Positions 11,513 through 60,533 of a stretch of DNA of 64,000 nucleotides are shown here, piece after piece (the first letter of the stretch is position 1; each line of letters starts with the position of its first letter). The DNA lies in the NCBI RefSeq assembly GCF_001953305.1, contig NZ_MTFE01000010.1, positions 421,783 to 485,782 of the forward strand. Direction: 5' to 3'. The DNA comes from Cnuella takakiae. GTDB taxonomy: Bacteria; Bacteroidota; Bacteroidia; Chitinophagales; Chitinophagaceae. Position numbers and translations under genes: made by a program. The notes below the pieces were generated by a model. That model was not told the DNA's origin. It saw nothing but the letters and a program-made list of their open reading frames with translations, and made no database searches.

Positions 11513-11514
11513 GC

Positions 11515-11665
11515 AGTTTGGAGTTGTGGGTTTGGAGTTTGGGGTTAAATACAATCCATCTTTATTGTTGGTATAATTGTTTACATCTTGGATTGCTTTT
11601 TTGGTCCTGGTTAGAATCAGCAGCCTGTATTTTAACCCCAAACCCAAAACTTCAAACCCAAAACT
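11515..11665. repeat. Inverted 'GTTTGGGGTT' word repeat
   Basis: Left arm 11515-11553 consists of GTTTGGAGTT/GGGTTTGG words ending GGGGTTAAATAC. Right arm 11627-11665 is its imperfect reverse complement (GTATTTTAACCCCAAACCC...). Inside, AATCCAT and TGGATT pair again. The right arm stops 8 bases before the aldo/keto reductase ATG, so it could pair over the translation start. The same word family occurs around 35847-36066. Confidence 0.75.
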
Positions 11666-11673
11666 TTTAATTC

Positions 11674-43416: not shown

Positions 43417-44442
43417 ATGTCCGCCCTTTGGAACGACCGGCTCAATTTTCTCTCCAAGCTCACCCTGCGCAGGGTGGCCAACATGACCAAAGTGTGGGCC
43501 AGTTACCATTGTTCGAAGTGGAGCGGAAAGGCGGTACAGTGGGGCATGCCTGTTTCCATTGCCTTTGAACCCACTACTTCCTGCAACCTGCGTTGTCCCG
43601 AATGTCCCAGTGGGTTACGGGCGTTTAGCAGGCCAACCGGAATGTTGCAGCCCCGGTTTTTCCAGGCCACCATCAACGACCTGGCACCTGATATCTCCTA
43701 CCTTGTTTTTTATTTCCAGGGCGAGCCCTACCTCAATCCTGCTTTCCTCGATATGGTGCACTATGCCGCCGCCAAAAAGATTTATACCGCCACCAGCACC
43801 AATGCGCATTACCTGACCGACAGCCTTGCCCGCCGCACCGTGGAAAGCGGGCTGGACCGCCTGGTCATTTCCATCGACGGGGCTACCCAGCAAACCTACC
43901 AGCAGTACCGCGTAGGTGGCAAGTTGGATAAAGTGCTGGAAGGAACGGCCAATATTTTAAAATGGAAAAAAGAACTGGGCAGCAAAACGCCGCTGGTTGT
44001 TTGGCAGTTTTTAGTAGTGCGCCACAATGAACACGAAATCCCGGCCATCAGGCAGATGGCGAAGGAATCAGGCGTAGATGCGGTTTGGTTTAAAACCGCG
44101 CAGGTATACGATTTTGAAAACGATCCCAATGGGCTAATCCCGAACAACAATCAATACAGCCGCTACCGCCGCAATGCATCGGGGCTGATGGTGTTTAAAG
44201 GAAACAACCAGCGGCACTGCTGGCGGTTGTGGCATGCACCGGTTATTACCTGGGATGGCGCGGTGGTGCCCTGTTGTTTTGATAAAGACGCCCAACATAC
44301 CATGGGCAGCCTGCAGCAGCAATCGTTCCGGGAGCTGTGGCAAAGCGGGTTATATCAGAAATTTAGAGCTAAAGTGCTGCGCAGCCGCAGCGAGGTGGAC
44401 ATCTGTACCAATTGCTCGGAAGGCGTGCAGGTGTGGGGATGA
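43417..44442 (+). CDS. Radical SAM protein with SPASM-like C-terminus
   Basis: 341 aa from ATG 43417. Cys cluster in TTSCNLRCPECPSG (CxxxCxxC, ~54-61) binds the SAM-cleaving [4Fe-4S]. DGATQQTYQQYRVGG (~151) is the conserved downstream motif. The C-terminal Cys residues (HCWRLWHAPV, VVPCCFDKDAQH, DICTNCSEG) fit a SPASM-type auxiliary cluster. Such proteins modify peptides, sugars or proteins. No precursor peptide gene was found nearby, so substrate unknown. Confidence 0.87.
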   Translation: MSALWNDRLNFLSKLTLRRVANMTKVWASYHCSKWSGKAVQWGMPVSIAFEPTTSCNLRCPECPSGLRAFSRPTGMLQPRFFQATINDLAPDISYLVFYFQGEPYLNPAFLDMVHYAAAKKIYTATSTNAHYLTDSLARRTVESGLDRLVISIDGATQQTYQQYRVGGKLDKVLEGTANILKWKKELGSKTPLVVWQFLVVRHNEHEIPAIRQMAKESGVDAVWFKTAQVYDFENDPNGLIPNNNQYSRYRRNASGLMVFKGNNQRHCWRLWHAPVITWDGAVVPCCFDKDAQHTMGSLQQQSFRELWQSGLYQKFRAKVLRSRSEVDICTNCSEGVQVWG

Positions 44443-44446
44443 GAGG

Positions 44447-44700
44447 AGCTACAAGCCGCAAGCCGTAAGCTGCAAGTTTTTAGCTTCAAGCTGCAAGGGG
44501 GCCAAATACTGTAATGCGTATTGATTGGAAAGCGTGATGAACAGTTATAATACTTTATCATTCAAAAACGCAACTACAGTTTTTACAACCTTATACATTT
44601 ATGATGTCACCTGTGTTTTAGCTATAAAACTGGCAAGAATACAGGAAATGGTATTACTTGTGGCTTGCAGCTAAAAGCTTGCAGCTAAAAGCTAACAGCT
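44447..44700. repeat. Inverted 'GCTTGCAGCTAAAAGC' word repeat
   Basis: Left arm 44447-44498 (AGCTACAAGCCGCAAGCC, GTAAGCTGCAAG, TTTTTAGCTTCAAGCTGCAAG) and right arm 44657-44700 (CTTGTGGCTTGCAGC, TAAAAGCTTGCAGC, TAAAAGCTAACAGC) are imperfect reverse complements. They enclose about 160 bp of AT-rich DNA with no visible gene. Confidence 0.75.
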
Positions 44701-47104: not shown

Positions 47105-47806
47105 ATGAAACGACAGATCATTTTAACTAAAGACGGCTCTCATACAGTGGAAATACCGGAGCTGCAGGTAGCTTACCATTCGCATAATGGCGCATTGCAG
47201 GAGTCGGTGCATGTGTTTATAGAAGCAGGGCTGCGGTTTGTTGCAGGCCATACTGGTCAGGCCAATACCGCCAGTACGCCCCTCCGCATCTTCGAAATGG
47301 GATTCGGCACCGGACTCAATGCTTACCTCACCGCACTGGAAGCCTATAAGCTGCAAATTCCAATTCATTATACTGCCATAGAACCCTACCCCCTCGGCTC
47401 TGAGGAAATTGCGTTGCTCAATTACGCAGCAACAGAAGCAGACCGGGAGTTGTTTTCCCAACTGCACCAGGCACCCTGGCAGGAAGATGTGCCCATCACG
47501 CCACTTTTTACCCTCCACAAGCAGCAAACAGCATTGTTCCAATTCAACATAGCAGCACCCGTTCACCTTATTTACTACGATGCGTTTGCACCCAGCGCCC
47601 AGCCCGAGTTATGGACGGAATCAACTTTCAGCCAACTGCACCGCATGCTGGTTCCGGGTGGTGTGCTGGTTACCTATTGTTCCAAAAGCGTGGTACGCCG
47701 CGCCATGCAGGCGGCCGGTTTTACCGTAACCAAAATACCCGGCCCAAGGGGTAAGCGGGAGATGGTGCGGGCTAGCACCCCCTGTCCCCCTGAAGGGGGA
47801 ACTTAG
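47105..47806 (+). CDS. mnmD: tRNA 5-methylaminomethyl-2-thiouridine methyltransferase MnmD
   Basis: 233 aa SAM-dependent enzyme that finishes the wobble-uridine modification mnm5s2U. FEMGFGTGLNAYLT (~70-83) is the SAM-binding motif I; YYDAFAPSAQPELW (~166-179) and GVLVTYCSKSVVRRAM match the MnmC1 family. Bacteroidota carry MnmD as a separate protein. The last nine residues (TPCPPEGGT) and the TAG are encoded by the terminal inverted repeat of a palindromic element, so the C-terminus was probably altered by its insertion. Frame to 47042 is upstream leader. Confidence 0.93.
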   Translation: MKRQIILTKDGSHTVEIPELQVAYHSHNGALQESVHVFIEAGLRFVAGHTGQANTASTPLRIFEMGFGTGLNAYLTALEAYKLQIPIHYTAIEPYPLGSEEIALLNYAATEADRELFSQLHQAPWQEDVPITPLFTLHKQQTALFQFNIAAPVHLIYYDAFAPSAQPELWTESTFSQLHRMLVPGGVLVTYCSKSVVRRAMQAAGFTVTKIPGPRGKREMVRASTPCPPEGGT

Positions 47807-48032
47807 GCCGGAGTGACCAATCGTATTAGGAGGTGTCCATTAAATTAAGTTTTGATAGGAACGCGGATAGAACAGATATCCGTTTCATCCGTTCTATTCG
47901 CGTTCCTATCCCGAAATCAAATAAATAAACCTATTGTGTTTGATAGAAAACAACAGCGCCCCTCTGCTTAGGAGGGGCGCTGTTCGTATAAGTATGTTTG
48001 ACCTAAGTTCCCCCTTCAGGGGGACAGGGGGT
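47777..48032. mobile_element. 256-bp palindromic MITE-like element, copy 1
   Basis: Ends are a perfect 31-bp inverted repeat (47777-47807 and 48002-48032; core CCCTGAAGGGGGAACTTAGG). Inside are an imperfect 19-bp inverted pair of ATAGGAACGCGGAT words (47855-47873, 47891-47909) and a GC-rich hairpin AACAGCGCCCCTC/GAGGGGCGCTGTT (47952-47964, 47972-47984). No reading frame. It lies between the convergent mnmD and cysS genes. A second copy is at 59292-59567. Confidence 0.85.
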
Positions 48033-48040
48033 AGATGAGG

Positions 48041-49528
<1,488 letters not shown>

Positions 49529-49566
49529 GGTTTCCTGTTTGCTTGTACCCGCCAGGGCGGGGAGGG

Positions 49567-49574
49567 CAAAAGTA
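49567..49574 (-). promoter_or_regulatory. -7 box for cysS
   Basis: TACTTTTG on the minus strand, 38 bases before the cysS ATG, fits TAnnTTTG. Confidence 0.5.
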
Positions 49575-49653
49575 ACTAATGCAGGGCAGAATGGCAGGGG
49601 CGAAACCAAAGCACGAACGGCAGGGCCAGCGCTCCTTTCAACCCCTAAACCCC

Positions 49654-50625
49654 TCACTTTCCCGCAAGTTTGATTCTTTCGCCTTGAATGGGTGAATAGT
49701 CTTCTTTCACGGTGCCGTTTACCAGCAGTTTATTAAAGTAACATTTCACGCCGGTGGCCACATTCATATCGGCCGTGTTTTGCACATGAAAATGCAGGTG
49801 CGGCTCCGACGAGTTGCCCGAATTGCCGCAAAGCCCCAGCAGTTGTTCCGCTTTTACTTTTTGCCCTTGCCGCACCTTGATGGTGTGTTGTTGAAAGTGG
49901 GCAAAGAACAGGTACTCCTCGCGGGCCGTTTTGATGATCACGGTATTACCCGGAACATAAATGGGGTTGAGGGTGCCGGGTGTATTGTCCGGAATGCCAT
50001 CTACTACCTGCACCACCTCGCCATCGGCGGGTGCATAAAGGGGTTTGCCAAAGGCGTAATAATCAGCATTGCTGGCTCCCTTGTTGCGATGCGACTTGCC
50101 CGCACTATCCTTTATCACCAAGTCGAAAGCATGTTGCTGGGCGGGGCTTTCTACGTGGTAGTTCTGTTCTTTGGTATCGCCGCCCCACACTACCGTCCAT
50201 TCCTCTTTAAAGGGCAGCGCCAGTGGCGACAGGTTGCGCTTCATTTTAGGCAGACTGCTTTCGGTAAATGGCCTTACCAGCAACCCGCTGATGCGGCTGC
50301 TATCGTCAACGGCAATATTGAGCGAAAACAAGGCCTTTTCAAAACGGGTTTTGTATTCGTCAAACCCGGCCCGGTGCCGCACAAATTCGCGGCTTTGTAT
50401 GGTGCCCGCCTGCTTATTCAATCCCTGCAAAAAAGCAACGGTTTTATCGGCAGGCAGGGCCTGCTTCATTTGTGCGGTGAAGAGCGCAAAGATGCTGTCG
50501 TACCGGCCTGCATTGTACAGCATTTCAAACCTTGCAGCTACCTGCTGGTTTTGAGTTTGGCTGTTTTGTGCGCTTAATATTTGGTTGGCGAACAGGCTAA
50601 TGATACAGAGCAACAGGTTGCGCAT
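49654..50625 (-). CDS. M23 family metallopeptidase
   Basis: 323 aa. Signal peptide MRNLLLCIISLFANQILSAQ, then an unusual N-terminal region with DUF3887-like fold (VAARFEMLYNAGRYDSIFALFT), then the LytM domain with zinc ligands: H..D in QQHAFDLVI (~170) and HxH in EPHLHFHVQN (~277-286). Predicted to cleave peptidoglycan cross-links or related glycine-rich peptides in the periplasm. Start at 50625 is the only one giving a signal peptide. Confidence 0.88.
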   Translation of the reverse strand: MRNLLLCIISLFANQILSAQNSQTQNQQVAARFEMLYNAGRYDSIFALFTAQMKQALPADKTVAFLQGLNKQAGTIQSREFVRHRAGFDEYKTRFEKALFSLNIAVDDSSRISGLLVRPFTESSLPKMKRNLSPLALPFKEEWTVVWGGDTKEQNYHVESPAQQHAFDLVIKDSAGKSHRNKGASNADYYAFGKPLYAPADGEVVQVVDGIPDNTPGTLNPIYVPGNTVIIKTAREEYLFFAHFQQHTIKVRQGQKVKAEQLLGLCGNSGNSSEPHLHFHVQNTADMNVATGVKCYFNKLLVNGTVKEDYSPIQGERIKLAGK

Positions 50626-50790
50626 AAAAGGTTTTGTGAGGAAAGAGGAAATAGGTTTTGTAAGATAAAAGGTGCCTGCTTGCATAGCCGTTATGATTAG
50701 GTATGCCGGCTACTGCAAGCAAGCCATCAAGGGTGCGGTACCAGCGCAGGATCACCCGCTTTTTCCGGGAATACCAATCCGCAACAGGTT

Positions 50791-51930
50791 TTATTGTTTT
50801 TCAATGGTAGCCGGCGGGTGCAGCTTCAGGTCTGCTACCAGTGGATAGTGGTCGGACAGGTCGCGTACCAGACGCTGGAACTGCATTACTGCAAAGTCCT
50901 TGCTGGTGAGGATATAATCAATGCGCAAAGTGGGCGAGATGCCGGTGAAGGTGCGGCCGATGCCGAAACCTTTTTCCAGGAAAACATCCTGCATGCCCTT
51001 GCTGATGTGGCGGTAAGTAAAGGAGTTGGGAATATCGTTGAAATCGCCAGTGAGCACCACGGGGTAAGGGCTGCGCTCCACTTGCTCCCGTACCAGTTTT
51101 GCCTGAACGGCTCTTTGCTGTCCTGCAAATTTGAGTTTACCCAAAATACCCCGCGAATTTTGCAGCAGGCTGTCATCGCGGTCCTTGATCTCTTCGATGT
51201 TTTGGTAGTCCTCGGGGCGAAACTGTACCGACTGCAGGTGAGTGGTCATCACCCGCAGGGTATCGCCTTCATGCACCACGTCGGCCATGATCAGCGCTTC
51301 GTGAATACCCGGCTTGGGAAAATAAATTTTAGCCGAATCAATGATGGGGAAACGGGAAAAAATGGCCTGCCCGAACCACTCGTCGGTCACAATCTGGTTG
51401 CCGCCAAAATAGAAATAAGGATAACCCAGTTCTTCCTGCAGGTAGCGCACATTATTGTACTGTGCTGGATTGGTGCTTTTATAAAACTCCGACATACAAA
51501 TGATATCGGGATTTTGCTTGCGTATCAGGTCCAGCATTTTCTGGCGGGTGCGGCTACCCTTATTGTCGTTGCGGTTTACCTCTATAAATCGGGCCACGTT
51601 CCAGTGCAGTACCCTGATGTTGCCGGCTTCTTTTTTATCAATAAAATCGGGCAGGGGACGCAGGGTTACAAAGCGCAGGATGCTTTGGTACCCGATGCCC
51701 ATGGCCAGCAGGGAAATAAGGATGTAGCGCGGCCCGAAGATGATCCAGAAAAAGATAAAGGCGATGAGCACCAGCAGCAGGATGGGAAAACCCAGGCCCA
51801 GGAAAGTAACCCCCCACCAGTGTTGCGGAGAGATAAAGGATCCGAAGGCGGCAACTAAAAAAAGAAGGGCAGCACCTACATGCAAAAAAAGAAAAAAGCG
51901 TTTTGCAATACGGGTAAACGAGACTGCCAT
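50791..51930 (-). CDS. Membrane endonuclease/exonuclease/phosphatase (EEP) domain protein
   Basis: 379 aa from ATG 51930. Three N-terminal hydrophobic segments (about 5-90), then an EEP domain with catalytic residues LHWNVARF (~109-116), GDFNDIPNSFTY (~293-304) and SDHYPLVADL (~360-369). The EEP fold covers nucleases, phosphatases and sphingomyelinases; membrane anchoring argues for an extracytoplasmic phosphodiesterase, substrate unknown. Lies behind the word-repeat terminators that follow the rhomboid operon. Confidence 0.82.
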   Translation of the reverse strand: MAVSFTRIAKRFFLFLHVGAALLFLVAAFGSFISPQHWWGVTFLGLGFPILLLVLIAFIFFWIIFGPRYILISLLAMGIGYQSILRFVTLRPLPDFIDKKEAGNIRVLHWNVARFIEVNRNDNKGSRTRQKMLDLIRKQNPDIICMSEFYKSTNPAQYNNVRYLQEELGYPYFYFGGNQIVTDEWFGQAIFSRFPIIDSAKIYFPKPGIHEALIMADVVHEGDTLRVMTTHLQSVQFRPEDYQNIEEIKDRDDSLLQNSRGILGKLKFAGQQRAVQAKLVREQVERSPYPVVLTGDFNDIPNSFTYRHISKGMQDVFLEKGFGIGRTFTGISPTLRIDYILTSKDFAVMQFQRLVRDLSDHYPLVADLKLHPPATIEKQ

Positions 51931-51963
51931 TGATGCAAAATAAATGAAAAGCGGCAATGGAAT

Positions 51964-52150
51964 AATGAGCTAATGAGCTAATTGGCTAATGTGCTAAAAA
52001 AGACAGGCCTCATTCGGACAGCCTTTAGCACATTAGCTCCTTATCCTATTAGCTAATTTCGATAGCTGGGCTAATATGCAAATGGGAAAAGAAAAGGCCG
52101 TCCTTGTTTGGACAGCCTTAGCATATTATCTCATTATCGCATTAGCAAAT
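51964..52150. repeat. Double 'GCTAATGTGCTAAA' word-repeat hairpin
   Basis: First unit: left words 51964-51998, ending GCTAATGTGCTAAA (51985-51998), pair with right words beginning TTTAGCACATTAGC (52024-52037) and running to 52060. Second unit: GGGCTAATATGC words from 52071 pair with GCATATTATCTC type words to 52150, with an AAGGCCGTCC/GGACAGCCTT hairpin at 52094-52119. It lies behind the rhomboid operon and likely acts as its terminator region. Confidence 0.8.
52094..52119 (-). terminator. Terminator hairpin behind rhomboid operon
   Basis: AAGGCCGTCC (52094-52103) and GGACAGCCTT (52110-52119) stem, with TTTTCTTTTCCC following on the minus strand. Inside the second word-repeat unit. Confidence 0.65.
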
Positions 52151-52152
52151 TT

Positions 52153-53082
52153 TCAGAGCAGGTCTTCGCGGCTGGCGCGGGTAAGGATTTCCCTTTCTTC
52201 ATCACTCAGCGAGCCATAGCCCTTCTGGTTGATCTTGTCGAGGATATCATCAATACGCTGCTGGGTAACATTGGAAGTTTTCTTGAAAGGCTTTACACTG
52301 CTTTTATAAAACAACTGAGTTTTTACTTCCTTTCCTTTTGCCGGCTTGTCGGGGTTGAACAGGTTATTGATCCAGTCGTAAAAATTATTCATCCAGGTAC
52401 TCCAGTCATAACCTTTGCGCAGCAAACCAACCAGCACAAAACCCGTACCGGCACCTGCCAGGTGGGCGATGTGGCCACCGGCATTGTTGTAAGGTATGGT
52501 AGCCAGGTCGATGATGACAAAGATGAGGGTGAGCACCCACAGCGGAATACCGCCGTTCAGCAAGGGGAAGATGCGGTAGTTGGGCGCCAGCACCGTGGTG
52601 GCAATGGCAATGGCCATCACGCCAGCCGATGCACCAAGGGCGCTTGAAGCAGCCAGGTTTTCGCGCAGGGGCGGCAGCAGGTTGCAGGCCAGCATATAGG
52701 CTGCCGCACCCGCTAGGGCACCATAAATAAAAATGGGAATCAGCTTACGGTTGCCTGCCAGGTCCTGGAGGATATAGCCAAAAGCCCAGAGCCAAAGCAT
52801 ATTGGCAATGATATGCCATACGCTGTCGTGTACGATGAAGTGGGTGAGCAGGGTCCAGGGGCGGGTAATAAACACCTGAAGCGATGCAGGCAGGGCCACC
52901 CAGTCCAGTACATTATCCTGGTAGATTAGCACACCCTCCTTTCCGTAGGTGAAATAATAGACAACCTTGATGAAGGCCAGGAGGATGAATACCACCAGGT
53001 TCACGGCAATCAGCATGACCAATGAGTTACCGTCATGACCCACTGTCAGCCTGCTTCTGTTTTGTTCTCGGTAAAAGCTCAT
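52153..53082 (-). CDS. Rhomboid intramembrane serine protease with C-terminal extension
   Basis: 309 aa. Six-helix rhomboid core, HxxxN in HIIANMLWLW, catalytic Ser in ALGASAGVMAI (the usual GxSG appears as GASAG) and His in GHIAHLAGAG (~220). The hydrophilic C-terminus (~255-309) ends SLSDEEREILTRASREDLL, a helical motif found in many Bacteroidota rhomboids. It cleaves transmembrane segments of unknown substrates. Second gene of the rlmD-rhomboid-rhomboid run, 35 bp after the first rhomboid. Confidence 0.9.
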   Translation of the reverse strand: MSFYREQNRSRLTVGHDGNSLVMLIAVNLVVFILLAFIKVVYYFTYGKEGVLIYQDNVLDWVALPASLQVFITRPWTLLTHFIVHDSVWHIIANMLWLWAFGYILQDLAGNRKLIPIFIYGALAGAAAYMLACNLLPPLRENLAASSALGASAGVMAIAIATTVLAPNYRIFPLLNGGIPLWVLTLIFVIIDLATIPYNNAGGHIAHLAGAGTGFVLVGLLRKGYDWSTWMNNFYDWINNLFNPDKPAKGKEVKTQLFYKSSVKPFKKTSNVTQQRIDDILDKINQKGYGSLSDEEREILTRASREDLL

Positions 53083-53117
53083 GATAGCATTAAAGTTACA
53101 AGAAAGCGTAAATTATT

Positions 53118-53735
53118 TTAATAAAAACGGCTCCTGCTCCGGTTCCAATTCCATACCATGATGGCACCGGTAAGCGCACCGCCAAGGTGTGCAAAATGGG
53201 CGATATTATCCGTACCCTGTATGCCGCCAAAAAGATCAAATCCAATCAGGATCAGCATGGCCCATTTGGCCTTAATAGGCACCGGAACAAACAAAAACAT
53301 CAGCTCGGTATTGGGAAACAAAAGCGCAAAAGCCACGAAGATACCCATTACCGCACCCGAAGCACCCACCGCAGGCGCACCATCGCCCGAAGCGTACTGA
53401 ATGAGCAGGTGCAACACGGCAGCGCCCACACCACACATCATGTAAAACGCTAAAAAACGCTTGCCGCCCCAAATATTTTCCAGCTGCCGGCCAAACATGT
53501 AGAGCGCAAACATGTTGAACAGGATATGAAACAACCCGCCATGGGTGAACATATGGGTCAATATCTGGTAAGAACTAAAGTAAGGATGGTCCAGCGGGTA
53601 CAGCATCAGCAGCCTCGTAAGCCCAATACTGGGGTCGAGCAGCGTTTGCGCAATGAATACCACTACGTTGATGATGATCAGTGTTTTTACCACCGGCGGA
53701 AAACCCTCTGTACTGTAAGATCTGAAATTGCTCAT
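53118..53735 (-). CDS. Rhomboid intramembrane serine protease (short)
   Basis: 205 aa, compact six-helix form. HILFNMFALYMFG (HxxxN, ~71), GASGAVMG with catalytic Ser (~125), and AHFAHLGGALTG with catalytic His (~180). All residues of the Ser-His dyad are present. The ATG overlaps the rlmD stop by 4 bp (ATGA), so translation is coupled. Together with the next gene it forms a tandem rhomboid pair; the two are not recent duplicates (length and loop differences). Confidence 0.92.
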   Translation of the reverse strand: MSNFRSYSTEGFPPVVKTLIIINVVVFIAQTLLDPSIGLTRLLMLYPLDHPYFSSYQILTHMFTHGGLFHILFNMFALYMFGRQLENIWGGKRFLAFYMMCGVGAAVLHLLIQYASGDGAPAVGASGAVMGIFVAFALLFPNTELMFLFVPVPIKAKWAMLILIGFDLFGGIQGTDNIAHFAHLGGALTGAIMVWNWNRSRSRFY

Positions 53736-55234
53736 GGGTTCTTACTCCTTAGCTTTAGTTGTACCACGTTCTCGATGTGGTGGGTATGGGGAAACATATC
53801 TACGGGTTGCACCTTGGTCACCGCATATTTGGCATCCAGCAGTGCCAGGTCGCGGGCCTGCGTTGCCGGGTTGCAGCTTACATACACCACCGTGGGTGCT
53901 TCCATCTCCAAAATCTTATGTACCAGCTTTTCGTGCATGCCTGCCCTTGGCGGGTCGGTTATGATGACATCGGGGCGGCCATGCTCGGTAAAGAAGGCGT
54001 CGTTGCACACATCAATCACATCGCCACTAAAAAACACCCCATGATCAATACCGTTCAATTGGGCGTTTTCTTTTGCATCTTCAATGGCTGCTTCCACCAC
54101 TTCCACGCCAACAATCTTTTTGGCGCCGCGGCTGCAGAAGATACCAATGGAACCCGTACCGCAATACAGGTCGTACACTACCTGGCTGCCATCGAGCTCC
54201 GCGAAGTCACGGGTGATCTGGTACAGCTTTTCGCCCTGGCGGCTGTTGGTCTGGAAAAAGGATTTGGGACCGATCTTAAACCGGAAGTCTTCCAGCATTT
54301 CCTCCACATACCCCTTACCCTTGTACACCAGCGGGTTTTGATCAAACAGGGAGTCGTTCCATTTCAGGTTGATGGTGTATAGCAGCGTGGTGATCTGCGG
54401 AAAGGAAGCAACCAGCCATTCCAGCAGGGGCATCAGCTTTTTCTTGTTGTCCTCGCCCACCACCAGGTTTACCATCACCTCGCCGGTGGTGGTAATGCGT
54501 ACTTGCATGGTGCGCAGCATGCCCTGGTGCGAGCGGATATCGTAAAAGGAAATGCCATTATCAAGGGCATACTGCCGGATGGCATTGCGTATTTCGTTGG
54601 TAGGCTCGGGCTGCAGCCAGCATTTTTCAATGTGCACCACCTTGTCGAAGAAACCCTTGGCGTGAAAACCCAAAGCCCCTGGGCCATGGTCGGTTTGTGG
54701 CCTTTGTGGTTTTTCGCTGGAGTAAGTAACGCCATTGGGGGCACCGGGGGTGATGTGTTCGTACACACCGCCCTTCAGCATCCGGGGGCGTGCAGGCGGC
54801 TTGGCCTCGGTGTACTCCTTGGTGCTAAACGTATATTCCAGCTTGTTGCGGTAAAAACGGGTTTCGCCGGCACCGGCAATGGGAATGAAAGGGGGCAGTT
54901 CCACCTTGCCAATCCGTTTTAATACTTCTTCTACCTGGCGGTGTTTGCTCTGGAGCTGCTTTTCGTAAGGCAGCATCTGCCACTGGCAGCCGCCGCATAC
55001 GCCGAAATGTTGGCAGAAAGGCTCTACGCGGTCTTTGGAGTATGCATGAAAATGAAGGGCATGACCTTCGGCCCAGTCCTTTTTGGACTTGCCCAACCGC
55101 ACATCTACCACGTCGCCGGGAACGGCGCCTTCAATAAAAATGACTTTACCCTCCACGCGGGCCAGGGCTTTTCCTTCTGCGGCGTAGTCTTCCACCAGCA
55201 GTTTTTCCAGTACTATGTTTTGCTTTTTCCTCAC
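53732..55234 (-). CDS. rlmD: 23S rRNA (uracil-1939-C5)-methyltransferase RlmD
   Basis: 500 aa. N-terminal TRAM domain (VEDYAAEGKALARVEGKVIFIEGAVPGDVV), the [4Fe-4S] cysteines in CQHFGVCGGCQWQ (~75-87) plus a later Cys, SAM motif VYDLYCGTGSIGIF (~358) and catalytic Cys in VVYVSCNPATQARDL (~460). The frame opens at 55267, but GTG 55234 gives a natural N-terminus and lies 5 bases after a -7 box. The RumA-type protein family also includes RlmC, so the exact uridine is by homology. First gene of the rhomboid operon. Confidence 0.9.
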   Translation of the reverse strand: MRKKQNIVLEKLLVEDYAAEGKALARVEGKVIFIEGAVPGDVVDVRLGKSKKDWAEGHALHFHAYSKDRVEPFCQHFGVCGGCQWQMLPYEKQLQSKHRQVEEVLKRIGKVELPPFIPIAGAGETRFYRNKLEYTFSTKEYTEAKPPARPRMLKGGVYEHITPGAPNGVTYSSEKPQRPQTDHGPGALGFHAKGFFDKVVHIEKCWLQPEPTNEIRNAIRQYALDNGISFYDIRSHQGMLRTMQVRITTTGEVMVNLVVGEDNKKKLMPLLEWLVASFPQITTLLYTINLKWNDSLFDQNPLVYKGKGYVEEMLEDFRFKIGPKSFFQTNSRQGEKLYQITRDFAELDGSQVVYDLYCGTGSIGIFCSRGAKKIVGVEVVEAAIEDAKENAQLNGIDHGVFFSGDVIDVCNDAFFTEHGRPDVIITDPPRAGMHEKLVHKILEMEAPTVVYVSCNPATQARDLALLDAKYAVTKVQPVDMFPHTHHIENVVQLKLRSKNP

Positions 55235-55239
55235 GGCGC

Positions 55240-55247
55240 CAAAAGTA
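55240..55247 (-). promoter_or_regulatory. -7 box for rlmD
   Basis: TACTTTTG on the minus strand, 5 bases before the GTG start at 55234, fits TAnnTTTG and implies a very short leader. Confidence 0.5.
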
Positions 55248-55375
55248 CACCCTTTGCAGCAAGGCACCCGGCGACGCTTGTTGGCTTTAGGACGAAACTA
55301 ACAAGACCTTTACCGCAGGGCTGCATGCATGCCTTATTTTTACGAAACGGGAGGAGTCGCTTGAGCGGTTTCAGA

Positions 55376-55440
55376 AGTTCAATGGGTTCAATGGGTTCAA
55401 TAAGTTTGATGGGTTTGATGAATCCAATGGATTTCAGAAG
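55376..55440. repeat. 'GGGTTCAATGGGTTCAATAAG' word run
   Basis: Tandem degenerate 9-nt units (GGTTCAATG, GGTTCAATA, AGTTTGATG, GGTTTGATG, AATCCAATG). Single arm only. Upstream of the nested palindrome. Confidence 0.65.
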
Positions 55441-55502
55441 TTTCAAAAGCTGCCTTATTACCGTTGTGGCAATTAGGTGAAACTGTTGGCTTGTAGGCAA
55501 CA

Positions 55503-55684
55503 GAGCCCGTAGGGCTCCAATATGAATAGCCGCCGGTGCAACCGGCGGTAAAAAGACCGAATGGATAATGATACACCAAACCCCATCGGGGTTGAATATT
55601 GATTTGTTGTTCAACCCCGATGGGGTTGGGCATGAAAAGATGGCGGATGATTACCGGTTCCGCCGGTTGCACCGGCGGCTATTT
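55503..55684. repeat. Nested palindromic element in the largest gap
   Basis: Three palindromes in 180 bp. A small one, GAGCCC-GTA-GGGCTC, is at 55503-55517. An outer pair (55525-55548, 55660-55684) is a perfect 24-nt inverted repeat, each arm also self-complementary (CCGCCGGT..ACCGGCGG). An inner perfect 18-bp pair AACCCCATCGGGGTTGAA (55579-55596) and complement (55610-55627). It lies between divergent genes rather than at gene ends. No gene is visible in 55235-55789. Confidence 0.85.
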
Positions 55685-55789
55685 AAATTGAAATCCTAAC
55701 GGGCTGCTGCAACTGGTAACGCAATACCTATCTTGAAATATAAAAGTGAATACGCTCTTCAGGGAGCCACATATCAATAACCGCATTCC

Positions 55790-57247
55790 ATGAAGCAACT
55801 TGCATCATTCCTTCTTTTACTGAGCGCCACAACAGGTTTTGCGCAAACAAAACCTGCAGCCAAACCCGCCGCAGCGCCATCAGGCTTTGAAATAAAGGTT
55901 ACCCTCAAGCCATTCAAAAATCAGTGGATCTACCTGGGTCATTATTATGGCAAGCAGCTGCCCATCATCGATTCGGTAAAGCTGGACGCCAACAGCCAGG
56001 GTACTTTTAAAGGCACCAAAAAGCTGGGGGGCGGTATCTACCTGGTGGGCTTCCCCGACAGGGCCCGCAACTTTGAAATGCTGGTGGATCAAAACCAGCG
56101 CTTTTCTGTTGAAGCCGATACCCTCGACCTGGGCAGGATTGTATTTAAGGGCTCGCCCGAAAACGAAGCCTTCCTCGCTTACCAGGATGCCATGGGCCGC
56201 AGCGGCCGCGCCATTGATGCACTGATGCGCGAACGCCAGGGCAAGCCCGCAGCAGATTCCATCCGCATCACGGGCGAGATCGCGAAGATGCAGGAAGCCG
56301 TTAAGGATTACCGCAACGCCGCCATCCAGAATGACCCCAATGGTATCCTGGCAGCCTTGCTCCAGGCCATGAAAGAACCCGAAGTGCCGCAGAACAGTCC
56401 CGAGGCAGCCAAGGACACCCTCTTTGCCTACAAATACTACAAGGCGCATTATTGGGATGGCGTTAATTTCTGGGACGAGCGGCTGGCCCGCACGCCCTTC
56501 TTCGAAAACCGCCTCGACCGCTATTTCGAAAGGCTGGTATACCCCGTTGCCGATTCGGTGAACAAAGAAATTGACCGGATGATGGGATTTGCTTCCATCA
56601 ACGAGGAGATGCAGAAGTTCCTGCTGCTGAAATTCATCAACCGCTATTACAACCAGCAGTACATGTGGGAAGACGCGGTGTTTGTACACCTGTTTGAAAA
56701 ATACCTGGCGCAGAAAACCTATCCCTGGATGACCGAGCAGGGCAAGAAAATGATCACCGACCGGGCCTATAGCCTGATGGCCAACCTCACCGGCAACCCC
56801 GCTGCCGACATCGATCTGCCCGGGCTTGATGGCAAAAACAAAAAGCTTTACGACCTCAAGGCGCCCTATGTGCTGGTAGCCATCTACGATCCTACCTGCG
56901 GGCACTGCAAGGAAGTGATGCCTCGCGTGGACAGCCTGTACCGTAGCAAGTGGAAAGCCCAGGGGCTCCAGCTTTTTGGCATGGCAAAAGAAACCGAAGG
57001 CACCAAAGAGAACTGGACCAAATTCATCAAGGATTATAAATTGGCCGACTGGACGCATGTGTATTACAGCACCGCCATGGAAAAGGCCCGCGTGGATGCC
57101 GGTACCCCCAGCTACTCGCAGCTGTACGATGTGCAAAGCTTTCCTACCCTTTATTTATTAGACAAAGACAAGCGGATCATCGCCAAAAAAGTAACCGAGA
57201 AACAGGTGGACGAGATACTGGATTACCGGAAAAAAGAAGGGAAGTAA
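55790..57247 (+). CDS. Thioredoxin-fold protein with DUF4369 and DUF5106-like domains
   Basis: 485 aa. Signal peptide MKQLASFLLLLSATTGFAQ, a DUF4369-like N-terminal domain (KVTLKPFKNQWIYLGHYYGKQLPIIDSVKLD, ~40-130), a middle helical DUF5106-like region (~150-330), and a TlpA-like thioredoxin domain with active site CGHC in YDPTCGHCKEVMP (~367). Bacteroidota use such exported proteins as redox helpers in the periplasm; the client is unknown. Only one Cys pair is needed and present. Confidence 0.87.
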   Translation: MKQLASFLLLLSATTGFAQTKPAAKPAAAPSGFEIKVTLKPFKNQWIYLGHYYGKQLPIIDSVKLDANSQGTFKGTKKLGGGIYLVGFPDRARNFEMLVDQNQRFSVEADTLDLGRIVFKGSPENEAFLAYQDAMGRSGRAIDALMRERQGKPAADSIRITGEIAKMQEAVKDYRNAAIQNDPNGILAALLQAMKEPEVPQNSPEAAKDTLFAYKYYKAHYWDGVNFWDERLARTPFFENRLDRYFERLVYPVADSVNKEIDRMMGFASINEEMQKFLLLKFINRYYNQQYMWEDAVFVHLFEKYLAQKTYPWMTEQGKKMITDRAYSLMANLTGNPAADIDLPGLDGKNKKLYDLKAPYVLVAIYDPTCGHCKEVMPRVDSLYRSKWKAQGLQLFGMAKETEGTKENWTKFIKDYKLADWTHVYYSTAMEKARVDAGTPSYSQLYDVQSFPTLYLLDKDKRIIAKKVTEKQVDEILDYRKKEGK

Positions 57248-57289
57248 AGGCAATGTGATAATGAGCCAATGTGATAATGTGCTAAAACG
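57248..57289. repeat. 'GATAATGAGCCAATGTG' word run
   Basis: AATGTGATAATGAGCCAATG then TGATAATGTGCTAAA: same family as 40735-40795 and 51964-52150, right behind the stop codon at 57245-57247. Confidence 0.6.
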
Positions 57290-57294
57290 AAAGG

Positions 57295-57385
57295 GATTAT
57301 TGATTACTTATTATTGATTATTGGAAGGGCGAAGTAGTAATCTTATTGATCGGGATAAATAATCAGTAATCAATAATCAATAATC
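57295..57385. repeat. Inverted 'GATTATTGATTA' word repeat
   Basis: Left arm 57295-57322 (GATTATTGATTACTTATTAT, TGATTATT) and right arm 57358-57385 (AATAATCAGTAATCAATAAT, CAATAATC) are imperfect reverse complements over 28 nt with a 35-bp centre. It lies 23 bp upstream of the parvulin gene. Confidence 0.8.
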
Positions 57386-57408
57386 TTGTCCCACACGATA
57401 CCACCATC

Positions 57409-59307
57409 ATGCGCCACCTCCTCTTACCCGCCTTACTTTTTACAGCCTTGCAGGGCAGTACCCAAACATTGCTCACCATCGGCAATGATTCTATCTCTGT
57501 TGCGGAGTTCAATGAAGCTTTTCGCAAAAACAATACAGGTAAGGAAACTGCGGAAGCCCGCAGCAAGTACCTTGAACTTTTTATCGCAGCCAAGCTCAAG
57601 GTAAAGGAAGCCCGCAGCCGCGGCATTGATACTACTGCGCAGTTCCGCACCGACCTGGAAGCCCTGCGGGCCCAGGTTTTGCCCGCCTACCTTGCCGACC
57701 CGCAAAAGGTGCAGCAGCTTGCCGAAGAAGCTAACCAGAGAGGTCAGAAAGACCTGCAGGTGGCGCATATTTTTATTGCCACAGCCAACGCTGCCGATAC
57801 TGCTGCTGCCTATGTAAAAGCAAGAGAAGCGTACACCCGATTGCAATCGGGTGCTGCTTTCGACAAAGTAGCCGCTCAGTACTCCGACGATCCATCGGCA
57901 AAAAGCAATGGCGGCAACCTGGGGTATATCACTGCATTTTCGCTTCCTTACGAATTAGAAAACCTGGTGTACGCCACGCCTGTCGGCCGCCTGTCAGCGG
58001 TGTACCGCAGCAAGGCTGGTTATCATATTTTTAAAATAGTTGGAGAAAGAAAAGCAGCAGGCCGCATCAAGGCCGCCCAAGTCATGCTGGCCTTTCCACC
58101 CGACGCACCTGACGCAGAAAAAGCACGGCTGAAACAACAGGCCGATTCCATTTATAAAGCACTCCAAAAAGGCGCATCCTTTGAGGCCCTTGCCGAGCGG
58201 TACAGCAACGATGCCAACTCCGCCGGTGCTGGCGGGCTGCTGCCCGAATTTGGCGTGGGCCAGTACGATCCTGTTTTCGAGCAGGCCGTTTTTGCGCTGG
58301 CAAAAGATGGCGCCGTTGCGCCGCCATTTGTTACTGGCCATGGTATTCACATTGTTAAACGTATTGCGCGCCAACCTGCCGTGCTGTCTGGATCCGAAAA
58401 AGAAGCGGAGCTGGAACGGCTCCGGGCATTGGTAAAACAAAGCGACCGCATGCAAAGCAGCCTGGCGCAACAGGCAGCACAGATCAGGCAGCGGGCAGGC
58501 TACCAGCCCCTTCCGGCTAACCTGCAAAAAGCCCTTGAAGTGCGTACCCGCCAGGAACTGAACGGGCAGGTGCCGGCAGAAGCCCTCAGCAGCGATATGG
58601 TGTTGTTCAGCCTGGGTGGCCAGCCCTACACCGTGGCCAACTGGCTACAGTTTGCCCAAAACAACAGGGCGGAAGGCAATGGAAGCGACCAACCGTTTGA
58701 ACAGCTATGGAACGAATACCTGCAAACCCAAACCCTGGAGCACTACCAGCAGCACCTGGAAGACTATAACCCTGCCTTTAAGAAACAGATGCGCGAGCTG
58801 GAAGAAGGCAATCTTTTTTTCGAGATCATGCAGCAGGAAGTGTGGACACCCGCACAAAATGATACTGCAGCATTGCAGCAGTTTTACCAAAGCCATAAGG
58901 CCAACTATGTGTGGCAGCGCAGCGCCGATGTGGCCCTGTTTTTTGCCCCGGATAAAACCACGGCGGAAAAACTGGCTGCGCAAATAAAACAGGCGCCTGC
59001 CCGCTGGCGGAGCCTGGCAAGCAAGTTGGGTGCCGATATCAGTACCGATTCTACCCGAATGGAGTGGAGCAGCATTACCGGCAGCAACAAAATTACTTTT
59101 ACGCCCAATCAGCTCACGCCCATCGAAACAAATCCGGCAGATGGAACGGCCAGTTTTGCCCTGATCCTAAAAACCTACAGCCAGCCGCTCCAGCGCAGCT
59201 TTGAAGAAGCCAAGGGCAATGTGATCAACGACTACCAGGCGGAGAAGGAAAAGCAGTGGGTGGAAACGTTGAAGCAGAAGTATAAGGTCAAACCCCTGTC
59301 CCCCTGA
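57409..59307 (+). CDS. Periplasmic peptidyl-prolyl isomerase with two parvulin domains
   Basis: 632 aa. Signal MRHLLLPALLFTALQGSTQ, an N-terminal chaperone-like segment (ISVAEFNEAFRKNNT, ~27-105), parvulin domain 1 (VAHIFIATANAADTAAAY...YSDDPSAKSNGGNLGYITAFSLP) and domain 2 (KAAQVMLAFPPDAPD...YSNDANSAGAGGLLPEFGVG), then a C-terminal helical part with a further SurA-like segment. Such proteins help fold outer-membrane proteins. The C-terminal residues KPLSP and TGA are encoded by the end of a palindromic element. Confidence 0.88.
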   Translation: MRHLLLPALLFTALQGSTQTLLTIGNDSISVAEFNEAFRKNNTGKETAEARSKYLELFIAAKLKVKEARSRGIDTTAQFRTDLEALRAQVLPAYLADPQKVQQLAEEANQRGQKDLQVAHIFIATANAADTAAAYVKAREAYTRLQSGAAFDKVAAQYSDDPSAKSNGGNLGYITAFSLPYELENLVYATPVGRLSAVYRSKAGYHIFKIVGERKAAGRIKAAQVMLAFPPDAPDAEKARLKQQADSIYKALQKGASFEALAERYSNDANSAGAGGLLPEFGVGQYDPVFEQAVFALAKDGAVAPPFVTGHGIHIVKRIARQPAVLSGSEKEAELERLRALVKQSDRMQSSLAQQAAQIRQRAGYQPLPANLQKALEVRTRQELNGQVPAEALSSDMVLFSLGGQPYTVANWLQFAQNNRAEGNGSDQPFEQLWNEYLQTQTLEHYQQHLEDYNPAFKKQMRELEEGNLFFEIMQQEVWTPAQNDTAALQQFYQSHKANYVWQRSADVALFFAPDKTTAEKLAAQIKQAPARWRSLASKLGADISTDSTRMEWSSITGSNKITFTPNQLTPIETNPADGTASFALILKTYSQPLQRSFEEAKGNVINDYQAEKEKQWVETLKQKYKVKPLSP

Positions 59308-59567
59308 AGGGGAAACTTAGGCCGGAACGGCTGATAGGTTCCGCAGCGTGTGTGAAGGTTGCACACAATGATAGGAACACGGATGGAAGGGATAGAACAG
59401 ATGGAAACAGATATCCGTTTTATCCGTTCAATCCGTGTTCCCATCCCGAAATCAAATAAACATACCTTTTGTGTATCATAGAAAATAACAGCGCCGCTCT
59501 ACATCAGAGCGGCGCTGTTATTAAAAGTATGTTTGACCTAAGTTCCCCCTTCAGGAGGACAGGGGGT
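59292..59567. mobile_element. 276-bp palindromic MITE-like element, copy 2
   Basis: Same organisation as copy 1: ends 59292-59321 and 59537-59567 are an almost perfect inverted repeat. The internal ATAGGAACACGGAT pair is at 59371-59388 and 59427-59444. The GC hairpin AACAGCGCCGCTCT/AGAGCGGCGCTGTT is at 59487-59500 and 59506-59519. Compared with copy 1 both stems carry paired base changes. Also shared outside the stems: CCCGAAATCAAATAAA and AAGTATGTTTGACCTAAG. It separates convergent ppiC-like and metF genes. Confidence 0.85.
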
Positions 59568-59579
59568 GGGCTGTTGGTT

Positions 59580-60533
59580 TTAAAACACCTGCTTCACCAC
59601 ATTTGCCACCACCTGGGGCTTGCCCAAAGTGTAGTAATGCAGCACGGGCACGCCGGCCTGCTTCAGCTCGCGGCTCTGTTGCAGCAGCCACTCCGTACCC
59701 ACCTGCTCTACCTGTGCATCGGTGGAACAGGCCATGATGGCGGATGCAAGATCCTCCGGTATGTCCACGTGGAAGGTGCGGGGGATGATGGTGAGCTGCT
59801 TTTTGGAGGTAATAGGTTTCAGGCCGGGAATGATGGGTACGTTTACACCGGCATCCTTACAGGCCTGTACGTATTGGAAATACTTACTGTTGTCGAAAAA
59901 CATCTGCGTCACGGCATACTCGGCGCCGCCGTCCACCTTTGTTTTCAGGTGGGCGATATCGGTGCGGAGGTTGGGTGCCTCAAAATGCTTCTCGGGGTAG
60001 GCCGCCACACCAATACAGAAATCGGTTTTTACCGCGTTCTTCAGGTCTTCTTCCAGGTAGTGCCCGTTGTTCATCCGGATTACCTGCTGCATCAGTTCGG
60101 TAGCATAGCGGTTGCCACCGGGCTCGGGTTCAAAGGAGGTTTCGTTCTTGGGTGCGTCGCCGCGCAGTACCAGCACGTTGTCGATACCGAGGAAAGCAAG
60201 GTCGATCAGGGCGTCTTCTGTTTCCTGGCGGGTAAAGCCACCGCAAATGAGGTGGGGTACCGCATCTACCTTGTAGCGGTTCATGATGGCCGCGCAAATA
60301 CCAACCGTACCGGGGCGCTTACGCACTTCCACCTTTTCAAACACGCCATCGTTGCGGCGCTTGAACATGCTTTCCGAGCGGTGATAGGTAACATTGATAA
60401 AAGAAGGATTGAACCCCATCAGCGGATCGAGGTGATCCCAAAGGGCATTGATGCCTTTACCTTTCAGCGGGGGCAGTACTTCAAAGGATACCAAAGTGTC
60501 TTTGGCCTGCCGCAGGTGGTCGATTACTTTCAC
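59580..60533 (-). CDS. metF: 5,10-methylenetetrahydrofolate reductase
   Basis: 317 aa TIM-barrel flavoenzyme reducing CH2-THF to 5-methyl-THF for methionine synthesis. SFEVLPPLKGKG (catalytic Glu, ~16-27), ITYHR-like INVTYHRSES, LVLRGDAPKNE (~117-127), GVAAYPEKHFEAPN (~175-188) and the folate-side QMFFDNSKYFQYV motif are all present. The start appears to be GTG at 60533, as no ATG gives a better N-terminus; a -7 box lies 85 bases upstream. Confidence 0.95.
   Translation of the reverse strand: MKVIDHLRQAKDTLVSFEVLPPLKGKGINALWDHLDPLMGFNPSFINVTYHRSESMFKRRNDGVFEKVEVRKRPGTVGICAAIMNRYKVDAVPHLICGGFTRQETEDALIDLAFLGIDNVLVLRGDAPKNETSFEPEPGGNRYATELMQQVIRMNNGHYLEEDLKNAVKTDFCIGVAAYPEKHFEAPNLRTDIAHLKTKVDGGAEYAVTQMFFDNSKYFQYVQACKDAGVNVPIIPGLKPITSKKQLTIIPRTFHVDIPEDLASAIMACSTDAQVEQVGTEWLLQQSRELKQAGVPVLHYYTLGKPQVVANVVKQVF

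What the first reader, a model, noticed from the sequence alone, without database searches (positions are those of the whole stretch)
47777..59567. Two copies of an undescribed-looking palindromic element with compensating stem changes
Copies at 47777-48032 (256 bp) and 59292-59567 (276 bp) share 30-31 bp terminal inverted repeats, an internal ATAGGAAC word pair and a GC hairpin. In the GC hairpin, AACAGCGCCCCTC/GAGGGGCGCTGTT becomes AACAGCGCCGCTCT/AGAGCGGCGCTGTT. In the word pair, GAACGCGGAT/ATTCGCGTTC becomes GAACACGGAT/ATCCGTGTTC. Both arms change together, so pairing has been conserved rather than sequence. Each copy lies between convergent genes, like a portable bidirectional terminator. 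I do not recognise it as a named repeat family, but I could not search databases.
Basis: partly seen in the sequence, partly recalled or inferred. Interest (0 to 1): 0.75.

Follow-up and report, generated by a model that had tools for sequence, protein, structure and literature searches.

The report
Dispersed hairpin cassettes at gene ends
Short DNA cassettes with mirror-image C-rich ends and a likely transcription stop signal have spread to dozens of gene junctions in this bacterium, and two longer relatives of them enclose a gene for a DNA-cutting enzyme, which hints at how such cassettes might move.

Summary
The two elements are real, but they are two of 56 paired copies in this Chitinophagaceae genome. 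Each has inverted 30-bp caps (CCCCCTGTCCCCCTnnAGGGGGAACTTAGG). Most carry a GC hairpin shaped like a bidirectional terminator; about 14 carry a separate word-repeat hairpin. The paired stem changes hold in 44 hairpins (9 of 15 pairs change on both sides; 0 of 500 shuffles reach this). Copies lie between convergent (34) or co-directional (22) genes, none between divergent ones. Caps sit almost flush with gene ends, supplying 15 stop codons and parts of 8 proposed N-termini. The hairpin is in 33 of 34 convergent but 12 of 22 co-directional copies, so I infer a terminator. No target duplication of 4 nt or more, no GTAG tag, no link to Y1 transposases read. Two longer cap pairs, one here (broken) and one in a congener, enclose a DUF559 (Vsr-like) endonuclease gene. 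On plasmids of three other phyla, 16 of 25 DUF559 genes have strong flanking inverted repeats, mostly C-rich; 0 of 62 control genes do. Best reading: REPIN/MITE-like non-autonomous elements acting as portable terminators, whose coding form carries DUF559. Whether DUF559 moves them is untested.

The parts
47777..47807 (+). Copy 1, left cap (terminal inverted repeat); the stop codon of mnmC2 (ends 47806) lies inside it
47854..47910 (.). Copy 1, nested word-repeat hairpin module (GATAGGAACGCGGAT.../...ATTCGCGTTCCTATC)
47952..47984 (.). Copy 1, GC hairpin with A-rich and T-rich outer stem, proposed bidirectional intrinsic terminator; 57-nt stretch folds at -29.2 and -26.6 kcal/mol on the two strands, z -6.5 and -6.8
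48002..48032 (-). Copy 1, right cap, 8-9 nt from the cysS stop (48041)
59293..59321 (+). Copy 2, left cap; the stop codon of the PPIC-type rotamase gene (ends 59307) lies inside it (protein ends ..VKPLSP)
59370..59445 (.). Copy 2, nested word-repeat hairpin module
59484..59522 (.). Copy 2, GC hairpin (proposed terminator), 17 perfect pairs; -31.4 and -31.9 kcal/mol, z -8.4 and -9.1
59537..59565 (-). Copy 2, right cap, about 13 nt from the MTHFR stop (59580)
47105..47806 (+). mnmC2 (tRNA methyltransferase), C-terminus ..STPCPPEGGT encoded by the cap
48041..49525 (-). cysS (cysteine--tRNA ligase)
57409..59307 (+). PPIC-type peptidylprolyl isomerase gene
59580..60533 (-). MTHFR gene (methylenetetrahydrofolate reductase)

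Best explanation
The two elements belong to a family of cap-bounded, mostly non-coding elements (about 160 bp; mostly 250-320 bp when the word-repeat module is nested inside). Shown: dispersed copies with facing 30-bp C-rich palindromic caps, almost flush with the ends of the neighbouring genes, and an internal hairpin that keeps pairing while its sequence changes. Inferred, strongly: at convergent junctions the hairpin is the shared bidirectional intrinsic terminator of both genes. Inferred, moderately: the family moves, or moved, as a unit recognised at its caps, and the short copies are non-autonomous derivatives of a longer form whose interior is a DUF559 (Vsr-like, PD-(D/E)XK) endonuclease gene; nicking or cutting of junction DNA by that enzyme would start the copying. 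Inferred: selection leaves copies at gene ends, not between divergent genes, and relaxes on the hairpin at co-directional junctions.
For: Caps: 106 matches, control 0. Unit: 30 of 56 paired elements are 142-171 bp long; L003 and L005 share an 89.5% identical 210-bp interior at sites whose flanks look unrelated; 24 of 56 interiors are at least 70% covered by another element; hairpin motif GCCMCTC/GAGKGGC: 33 sites in the genome, 31 in paired elements, 2 in degraded ones. Terminator: 9 of 15 pairs changed on both sides, 77 such cells against 26.1 expected, 0 of 500 shuffles; hairpin motif in 33/34 convergent against 12/22 co-directional copies, p 1.5e-4; congener G015 has another hairpin (GCCTCCC/GGGAGGC), with its own paired changes by eye, in the same place. 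Position: 34 convergent, 22 co-directional, 0 divergent, against 21/127/43 cap-free gaps of loci of this genome; of 90 gene 3' ends facing a cap, 15 stop inside it, 72 lie at 0-23 nt, 3 further. DUF559: fills a cap pair of G003 (L276) and, frame-broken, one of this genome (L095), and is found nowhere else in the loci then held; on plasmids 16 of 25 DUF559 loci have strong flanking inverted repeats against 0 of 62 control genes of three of those plasmids.
Against: No expression data; the consensus scan sees a terminator tail for copy 1 on the minus strand only. No empty/filled site pair was found, so movement is inferred from dispersal. 9 of 25 plasmid DUF559 loci lack strong flanking repeats, among them both gammaproteobacterial ones and three of four Azospirillum; the score limit of 20 was set after seeing a first batch. 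Most strong plasmid cases are not flush with both neighbours. The caps of other phyla share a design (C-run, C-rich hairpin), not sequence, so common descent is not shown, and the Novosphingobium arms (L306) look different. Co-occurrence does not show which moves which.
Confidence: 0.5

Rival explanations
1. Ordinary REP/REPIN elements: each cap is a REP, the pair is a REP dimer, and a Y1 tyrosine transposase (RAYT) moved them; DUF559 is only a passenger.
For: Published REPs sit within 20 bp of both 3' ends at convergent pairs, supply stop codons and occur inside ORF ends (PMC3733652, section 15 read), as here; the lack of a clear target duplication fits a Y1 mechanism; in another genus (G205) 6 of 11 junctions with a CCCCCTGT cap have a different C-rich cap facing it, as separate REPs could.
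Against: No GTAG or CGTC tag in the cap consensus; only 1 of 30 Y1_Tnp loci read (of 59 matches in the genus) has a cap within 1.5 kb, and the two in this genome are flanked by other palindromes; G011, with 15 cap matches, has no Y1_Tnp hit, though it is 62% complete.
Confidence: 0.25
2. Neutral selfish repeats: the hairpin has no terminator role; copies survive only where they do least harm, and paired changes arise from template switching between the arms.
For: Convergent bias is also seen for IS elements and other repeats in pneumococcus and was read as tolerance (PMC3049150, passages). Template-switch correction is a mutational source of paired changes (recalled, no call).
Against: The hairpin is kept in 33/34 convergent but only 12/22 co-directional copies; another species has another hairpin of the same design in the same place; the residual flanks outside the caps are mostly a few nt, too short for a separate terminator.
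Confidence: 0.2
3. Caps were added separately at each gene edge around the native spacer, so the interior with its terminator is native and not part of a mobile unit.
For: Caps are near flush with gene ends at both sides; interiors of the nuoL-nuoM element look unrelated in G000, G001 and G011 (by eye); unlike caps face each other in G205.
Against: Sharp length mode, shared interiors and element-only hairpins.
Confidence: 0.1
4. Invertible DNA switch (inverton): a recombinase flips the interior between the caps.
For: Facing 30-bp repeats around a segment of about 100-250 bp; the interior occurs in both orientations on the contig.
Against: Most copies sit between convergent genes, where flipping a symmetric terminator would change little. 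I did not look for a recombinase.
Confidence: 0.03

Closest known systems
REP / REP dimers and REPINs (GTAG and CGTC families, RAYT-associated)
   Same: 20-40 bp palindromes, often in facing pairs, between convergent or co-directional genes, within 20 bp of 3' ends at convergent pairs, giving stop codons to neighbours (PMC3733652: passages, section 15 read)
   Different: No GTAG/CGTC tag; no RAYT linked in the loci read; a separate internal hairpin with compensatory changes; length mode near 160 bp; two longer cap pairs enclose DUF559
SPRITE of Streptococcus pneumoniae
   Same: Dispersed repeat resembling a Rho-independent terminator, the repeat most enriched between convergent genes there (PMC3049150, passages)
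   Different: SPRITE has only AAAA/TTTT as terminal repeats and an 18-bp duplex; no C-rich caps; another phylum
Correia/NEMIS, ERIC and other bacterial MITEs; BrickBuilt of Porphyromonas
   Same: Short, non-coding, terminal inverted repeats, intergenic (PMC10969869: outline and first part of section 11; PMC4596501: passages)
   Different: No clear target-site duplication here; no transposase found between caps in the loci read; BrickBuilt lies 49-591 nt from genes and carries tandem 23-mers
Rickettsia palindromic elements
   Same: Element read in frame as part of unrelated proteins (PMC10969869)
   Different: Here only at N- or C-termini, with cap peptides (..GLSSPFRGTGG....NPLSP..TPCPPEGGT)
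DUF559 / Vsr-like endonucleases
   Same: A Caulobacter protein with a DUF559 domain is described as PD-(D/E)XK and Vsr-like (PMC12907096, passages); PDB 3hrl matches by sequence
   Different: Treated there as a repair or genotoxic enzyme; no link to palindromic repeats in the listings and passages I saw

Membership tests
REP (GTAG/CGTC super-families) | GTAG or CGTC tetranucleotide at one end of the palindrome | tested here: not met
   The cap consensus CCCCCTGTCCCCCTnnAGGGGGAACTTAGG holds neither
REP (GTAG/CGTC super-families) | Located between convergent or co-directional genes, close to 3' ends | tested here: met
   34/22/0 and 87 of 90 3' ends inside the cap or within 23 nt
REPIN/RAYT system | Y1_Tnp gene flanked by the same repeats | tested here: not met
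   1 of 30 Y1_Tnp loci read, of 59 matches, has a cap within 1.5 kb; wider C-rich caps 0.20 per 10 kb in those loci against 0.36 in nuoL/era loci
MITE derived from a DDE insertion sequence | Target-site duplication | tested here: not met
   No flush direct repeat of 3 nt or more in 56 copies; shifting the boundary by 1-3 nt gives none of 4 nt or more and 3-nt ones at one offset only (4 of 56)
MITE derived from a DDE insertion sequence | Autonomous partner with the same ends | tested here: inconclusive
   No genome-wide transposase search beyond Y1_Tnp was made; two longer cap pairs enclose DUF559
Intrinsic terminator | Stable GC hairpin followed by a T-rich tail, both strands | tested here: inconclusive
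   Hairpin strong on both strands; consensus scan finds the tail on the minus strand only for copy 1
Known RNA family (Rfam 15) | Match at gathering score | tested here: not met
   0 matches in the window
DUF559 cap element (proposed) | DUF559 gene between facing caps of the window's family | tested here: met
   L276 and, with a broken gene, L095; not the two window copies, which are non-coding
DUF559 cap element (proposed) | Same arrangement in other phyla | tested here: inconclusive
   16 of 25 plasmid loci, 10 of 14 genera with at least one, have strong flanking inverted repeats, most C-rich by eye; caps differ in sequence from the window's
DUF559 cap element (proposed) | Enzyme acts on caps or junctions | not testable with these tools
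   Needs biochemistry

The most novel reading that the evidence does not exclude
DUF559 (Vsr-like) endonucleases are the engine of a cross-phylum class of mobile elements bounded by facing C-rich palindromic caps that home into gene junctions, including tight operon junctions (sufB|sufC, yqeY|dnaG, paaD|paaZ, pntAa|pntAb). Their non-coding derivatives, such as the window's cassettes, have become portable junction modules: they take over the whole spacer, supply the shared terminator of convergent genes, and supply stop and start codons to neighbours. This would be a third enzyme-repeat partnership beside RAYT-REP and transposase-MITE.
Probability: 0.35. Interest if true: 0.9.

Novelty: new variant of a known kind. 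Interest (0 to 1): 0.66.

Why it matters
If right, terminators can be dispersed by mobile DNA as ready-made bidirectional modules, and the mobiliser of some bacterial interspersed palindromes without a known enzyme may be a small nuclease that is annotated as a domain of unknown function. It would also explain odd peptides at protein ends (GLSSPFRGTGG, NPLSP) and small endonuclease genes lodged inside conserved operons. The main claims can be tested directly.

Tried and rejected
RAYT as mobiliser: not supported at the 30 Y1_Tnp loci read, of 59 matches. Known RNA: none. Duplication of just two copies: rejected by 56 paired copies. Target-site duplication: none of 4 nt or more at boundary offsets 0-3; 3-nt ones in 4 of 56 at offset 2 only. 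Long-range cap-cap coevolution: total L-R identity not above permutation (1431 against 1423.2; 393 of 2000 as high), loop dinucleotide modestly (29 of 56 against 20.0; 5 of 2000). Copy 1 in plasmid and phage records: no match. DUF559 of G003 in viral contigs: 6 stretches matched a pattern, none confirmed.

Replacement of the spacer against insertion into a tight gap is unresolved. For replacement: none of 21 cap-free convergent gaps in the fetched loci of this genome is 25 nt or shorter; cap-free nuoL-nuoM gaps (15) are 47-151 nt and era-der gaps (12 measured; G007's 310-nt gap with a cap remnant left out, two genomes with the genes not adjacent) are 35-152 nt. Against: in 2 of 18 conserved convergent junctions fetched from congeners the genes overlap, at the gene pair where this genome has element L018; the other 16 gaps are 51-602 nt and none of the 18 holds a cap.

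Limits: gene calls come from my own hexamer script trained on the window, not from an annotation; most loci are centred on elements, so the cap-free background is not a random sample. In congeners the script called 3 element junctions divergent (L229, L218; L275); L229 looks like a miscall by eye. Of 106 cap matches only 100 were listed. One of 45 elements with the hairpin motif (L092) was missed by the locator. For N-termini, 12 of 22 co-directional copies have an in-frame start codon inside the element; I propose 8, and 2 of those (L037, L096) also have a GTG just outside. The DUF559 tests use 40 or 20 shuffles; the score limit was chosen; controls come from three plasmids; 4 Deinococcus and 3 Sphingomonas loci are among the 16 strong ones. 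Three statements in my notebook are wrong and are mended here: 13 (not 14) of 17 congeners match; the cap-free convergent gaps run to 602 nt with two overlaps; the L292 arms are near-perfect, not perfect.
Full report
Observation. Both copies are as described. A BLAST of copy 1 against its own 5.7-Mb genome returned 149 matching pieces, and the cap pattern with up to 3 mismatches returned 106 places, 51 forward and 55 reverse, with none for the reversed control (100 listed). From the fetched loci I recognise 56 elements with two facing caps and 8 places with one (one of the 57 listed pairs is a self-pair). Lengths peak sharply: 30 of 56 are 142-171 bp; longer ones carry the word-repeat module or other inserts.

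Anatomy. Cap (30 bp plus a conserved outer A, 104 of 112 ends) - left arm (often CCGGAGTG) - optional word-repeat hairpin - GC hairpin with A-rich/T-rich outer stem - right arm (often ATGTTTGA) - cap. Mean pairwise identity is 0.79-0.93 in cap positions 1-30 and about 0.3 inside, compared without gaps. Yet many interiors are related: L003 and L005 are 89.5% identical over 210 bp at different sites, and 24 of 56 interiors are at least 70% covered by another one. The hairpin motif occurs 33 times in the genome, 31 times in paired elements and twice in degraded ones. So the unit appears to be caps plus interior.

Pairing. In 44 aligned hairpins, 9 of 15 pairs have changes on both sides, 92% of cells pair, and 77 cells are changed on both sides against 26.1 in shuffles, 0 of 500 as high; sliding partners by 1-3 columns lowers paired cells to 38-58%. 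Much of this is shared by two subtypes (GCCCCTC and GCCACTC), so independent events are fewer than cells. The congener G015 has caps of the same type but another hairpin family, GCCTCCC/GGGAGGC, with paired changes read by eye.

Context. Gaps holding elements: 34 convergent, 22 co-directional, 0 divergent. Cap-free gaps in loci of this genome: 21, 127, 43; convergent excess p 2.5e-13, divergent deficit p 9.5e-6. The hairpin motif is in 33 of 34 convergent and 12 of 22 co-directional copies (p 1.5e-4); the ones without it include nuoL-nuoM and era-der. Of 90 gene 3' ends facing a cap, 15 end inside the cap, 72 lie 0-23 nt away and 3 further. In 12 of 22 co-directional copies an in-frame start codon lies inside the element; I propose that in 8 of them the downstream protein starts there and reads through the cap (two of the 8 also have a GTG just outside). 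For TsaD the family model begins at residue 26 with its position 1, just after the cap-encoded residues 11-20. These starts are predictions.

Relatives. 13 of 17 congeners and none of 20 genomes of other genera match copy 1 at E 0.001; with 2 mismatches the cap is found in 6 of 396 sampled genomes of the order, 4 of 165 genera; exact caps in 21 stretches of named records come from Flaviaesturariibacter, Flavisolibacter, Paraflavisolibacter, Terrimonas, Ferruginibacter and unclassified Bacteroidetes. At nuoL-nuoM the element is in 3 of 18 genomes, with interiors that look unrelated. In G205, another genus, 6 of 11 junctions with a CCCCCTGT cap have a different C-rich cap facing it.

Mobility. 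No target duplication of 4 nt or more at any boundary tried; 3-nt repeats at one offset only, 4 of 56. Y1 transposases are not linked in the 30 of 59 loci read. The unexpected lead: the 541-bp cap pair of G003 (L276) is filled by a 148-aa DUF559 protein (Pfam E 4e-30) whose last residues are encoded by the cap, and the 499-bp pair of this genome (L095), the one convergent copy without the hairpin motif, holds a frame-broken DUF559 relative (46% identical over 103 aa); no other locus then held contains one. A DUF559-domain protein of Caulobacter is described as a Vsr-like PD-(D/E)XK endonuclease (PMC12907096, passages); PDB 3hrl matches at E 4.8e-14.

Test outside the phylum. tblastn found DUF559 relatives in 36 plasmid records. 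I fetched 26 and counted 25. In 16 of 25 the flanks of the gene form strong inverted repeats (local score 20 or more), against 0 of 62 genes around it in three of those plasmids (p 1.7e-11) and 1 of 55 window genes; beyond the best of 20 shuffles are 20 of 25, against 2 of 62 and 3 of 55. L276 and L095, where caps were known beforehand, are left out of these counts. 10 of 14 genera have at least one strong locus; both gammaproteobacterial loci and three of four Azospirillum loci have none. The arms are mostly C-rich palindromes of the same design as the window's caps, in cyanobacteria, alphaproteobacteria and Deinococcus (by eye); the Novosphingobium case (L306) differs. Four DUF559 genes split gene pairs that I know as operon neighbours: sufB|sufC, yqeY|dnaG, paaD|paaZ, pntAa|pntAb. 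The arms lie 0 and 26 nt from the paa genes, 0 and 5 nt from the pnt genes, 36 and 17 nt from the suf genes, but in most other annotated strong loci one or both arms are about 50 nt or more away, or overlap a gene. The Deinococcus and Pseudanabaena arms match 15 and 13 plasmid records, their own included.

What it is. It works like a REPIN or MITE carrying a terminator. It is not filed as a GTAG/CGTC REP (tag absent), a RAYT-REPIN (no linked enzyme in the loci read) or a DDE-type MITE (no clear duplication). The closest functional analogue is the pneumococcal SPRITE (PMC3049150, passages); the closest positional analogue is REPs near both 3' ends at convergent pairs (PMC3733652, section 15). 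The position bias is therefore not new in itself; the compensatory internal hairpin, its frequent absence at co-directional junctions, its replacement between species and the DUF559 link are what I did not find described. Basis for that: ten paper searches in an open-licence library; only 14 papers there contain 'DUF559', and of those I read passages of one and saw only listings of the rest.

Confidence. Family and anatomy: shown. Terminator role: likely (about 0.7). DUF559 form as the coding partner: about even. DUF559 as the mobiliser across phyla: about 0.35.

Noticed in passing
window gaps 11512-11674, 51930-52153, 44442-44679 and others; L142, L145, L118, L119, L114: Many co-directional gaps are edged by inverted repeats built of repeated 7-10 nt words (for example AATGAGCCAATGTGCTAATG, GTTTGGGGTTTGGAG, GACATCAGACATC). 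Edge inverted repeats at p<=0.05: 24 of 75 co-directional, 4 of 18 convergent, 1 of 28 divergent cap-free gaps here; 0 of 20 in 50 kb of E. coli; 6 of 14 nuoL-nuoM and 6 of 11 era-der gaps of congeners. The word-pair module of the finding is of this kind.
   Followed up: partly
L043 and L044 (G000 C1 584775-585119, 2176478-2176819): Two Y1_Tnp genes with their own palindromes nearby (CCCACGGTTTCAACCGTGGG; GCCGCCGGTGCAACCGGCGG and CCCCGTAGGGGTTG, by eye), candidate ordinary RAYT-REP systems.
   Followed up: partly
L026, L071, L073, L078, L080, L087, L115, L143: A recurrent module like GTACAAGTGTGCGACGCAAC (or its complement) in junctions and inside cap elements of several congeners, seen by eye.
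   Followed up: no
L039 2092-2682: A cap pair about 590 bp long encloses a small open frame with a membrane-protein look (by eye, not searched); possible cargo or a trapped native gene.
   Followed up: no
L150 (G001 C499) and L268 (G205): nuoL of one congener has cap elements on both sides; in L268 two junctions in a row carry a CCCCCTGT cap after the stop and a CCCCAAACCCC cap before the next start.
   Followed up: no
L311 17390-17905 (Picosynechococcus plasmid): Six same-orientation copies of the DUF559-associated cap, about 3 kb from the DUF559 gene.
   Followed up: no
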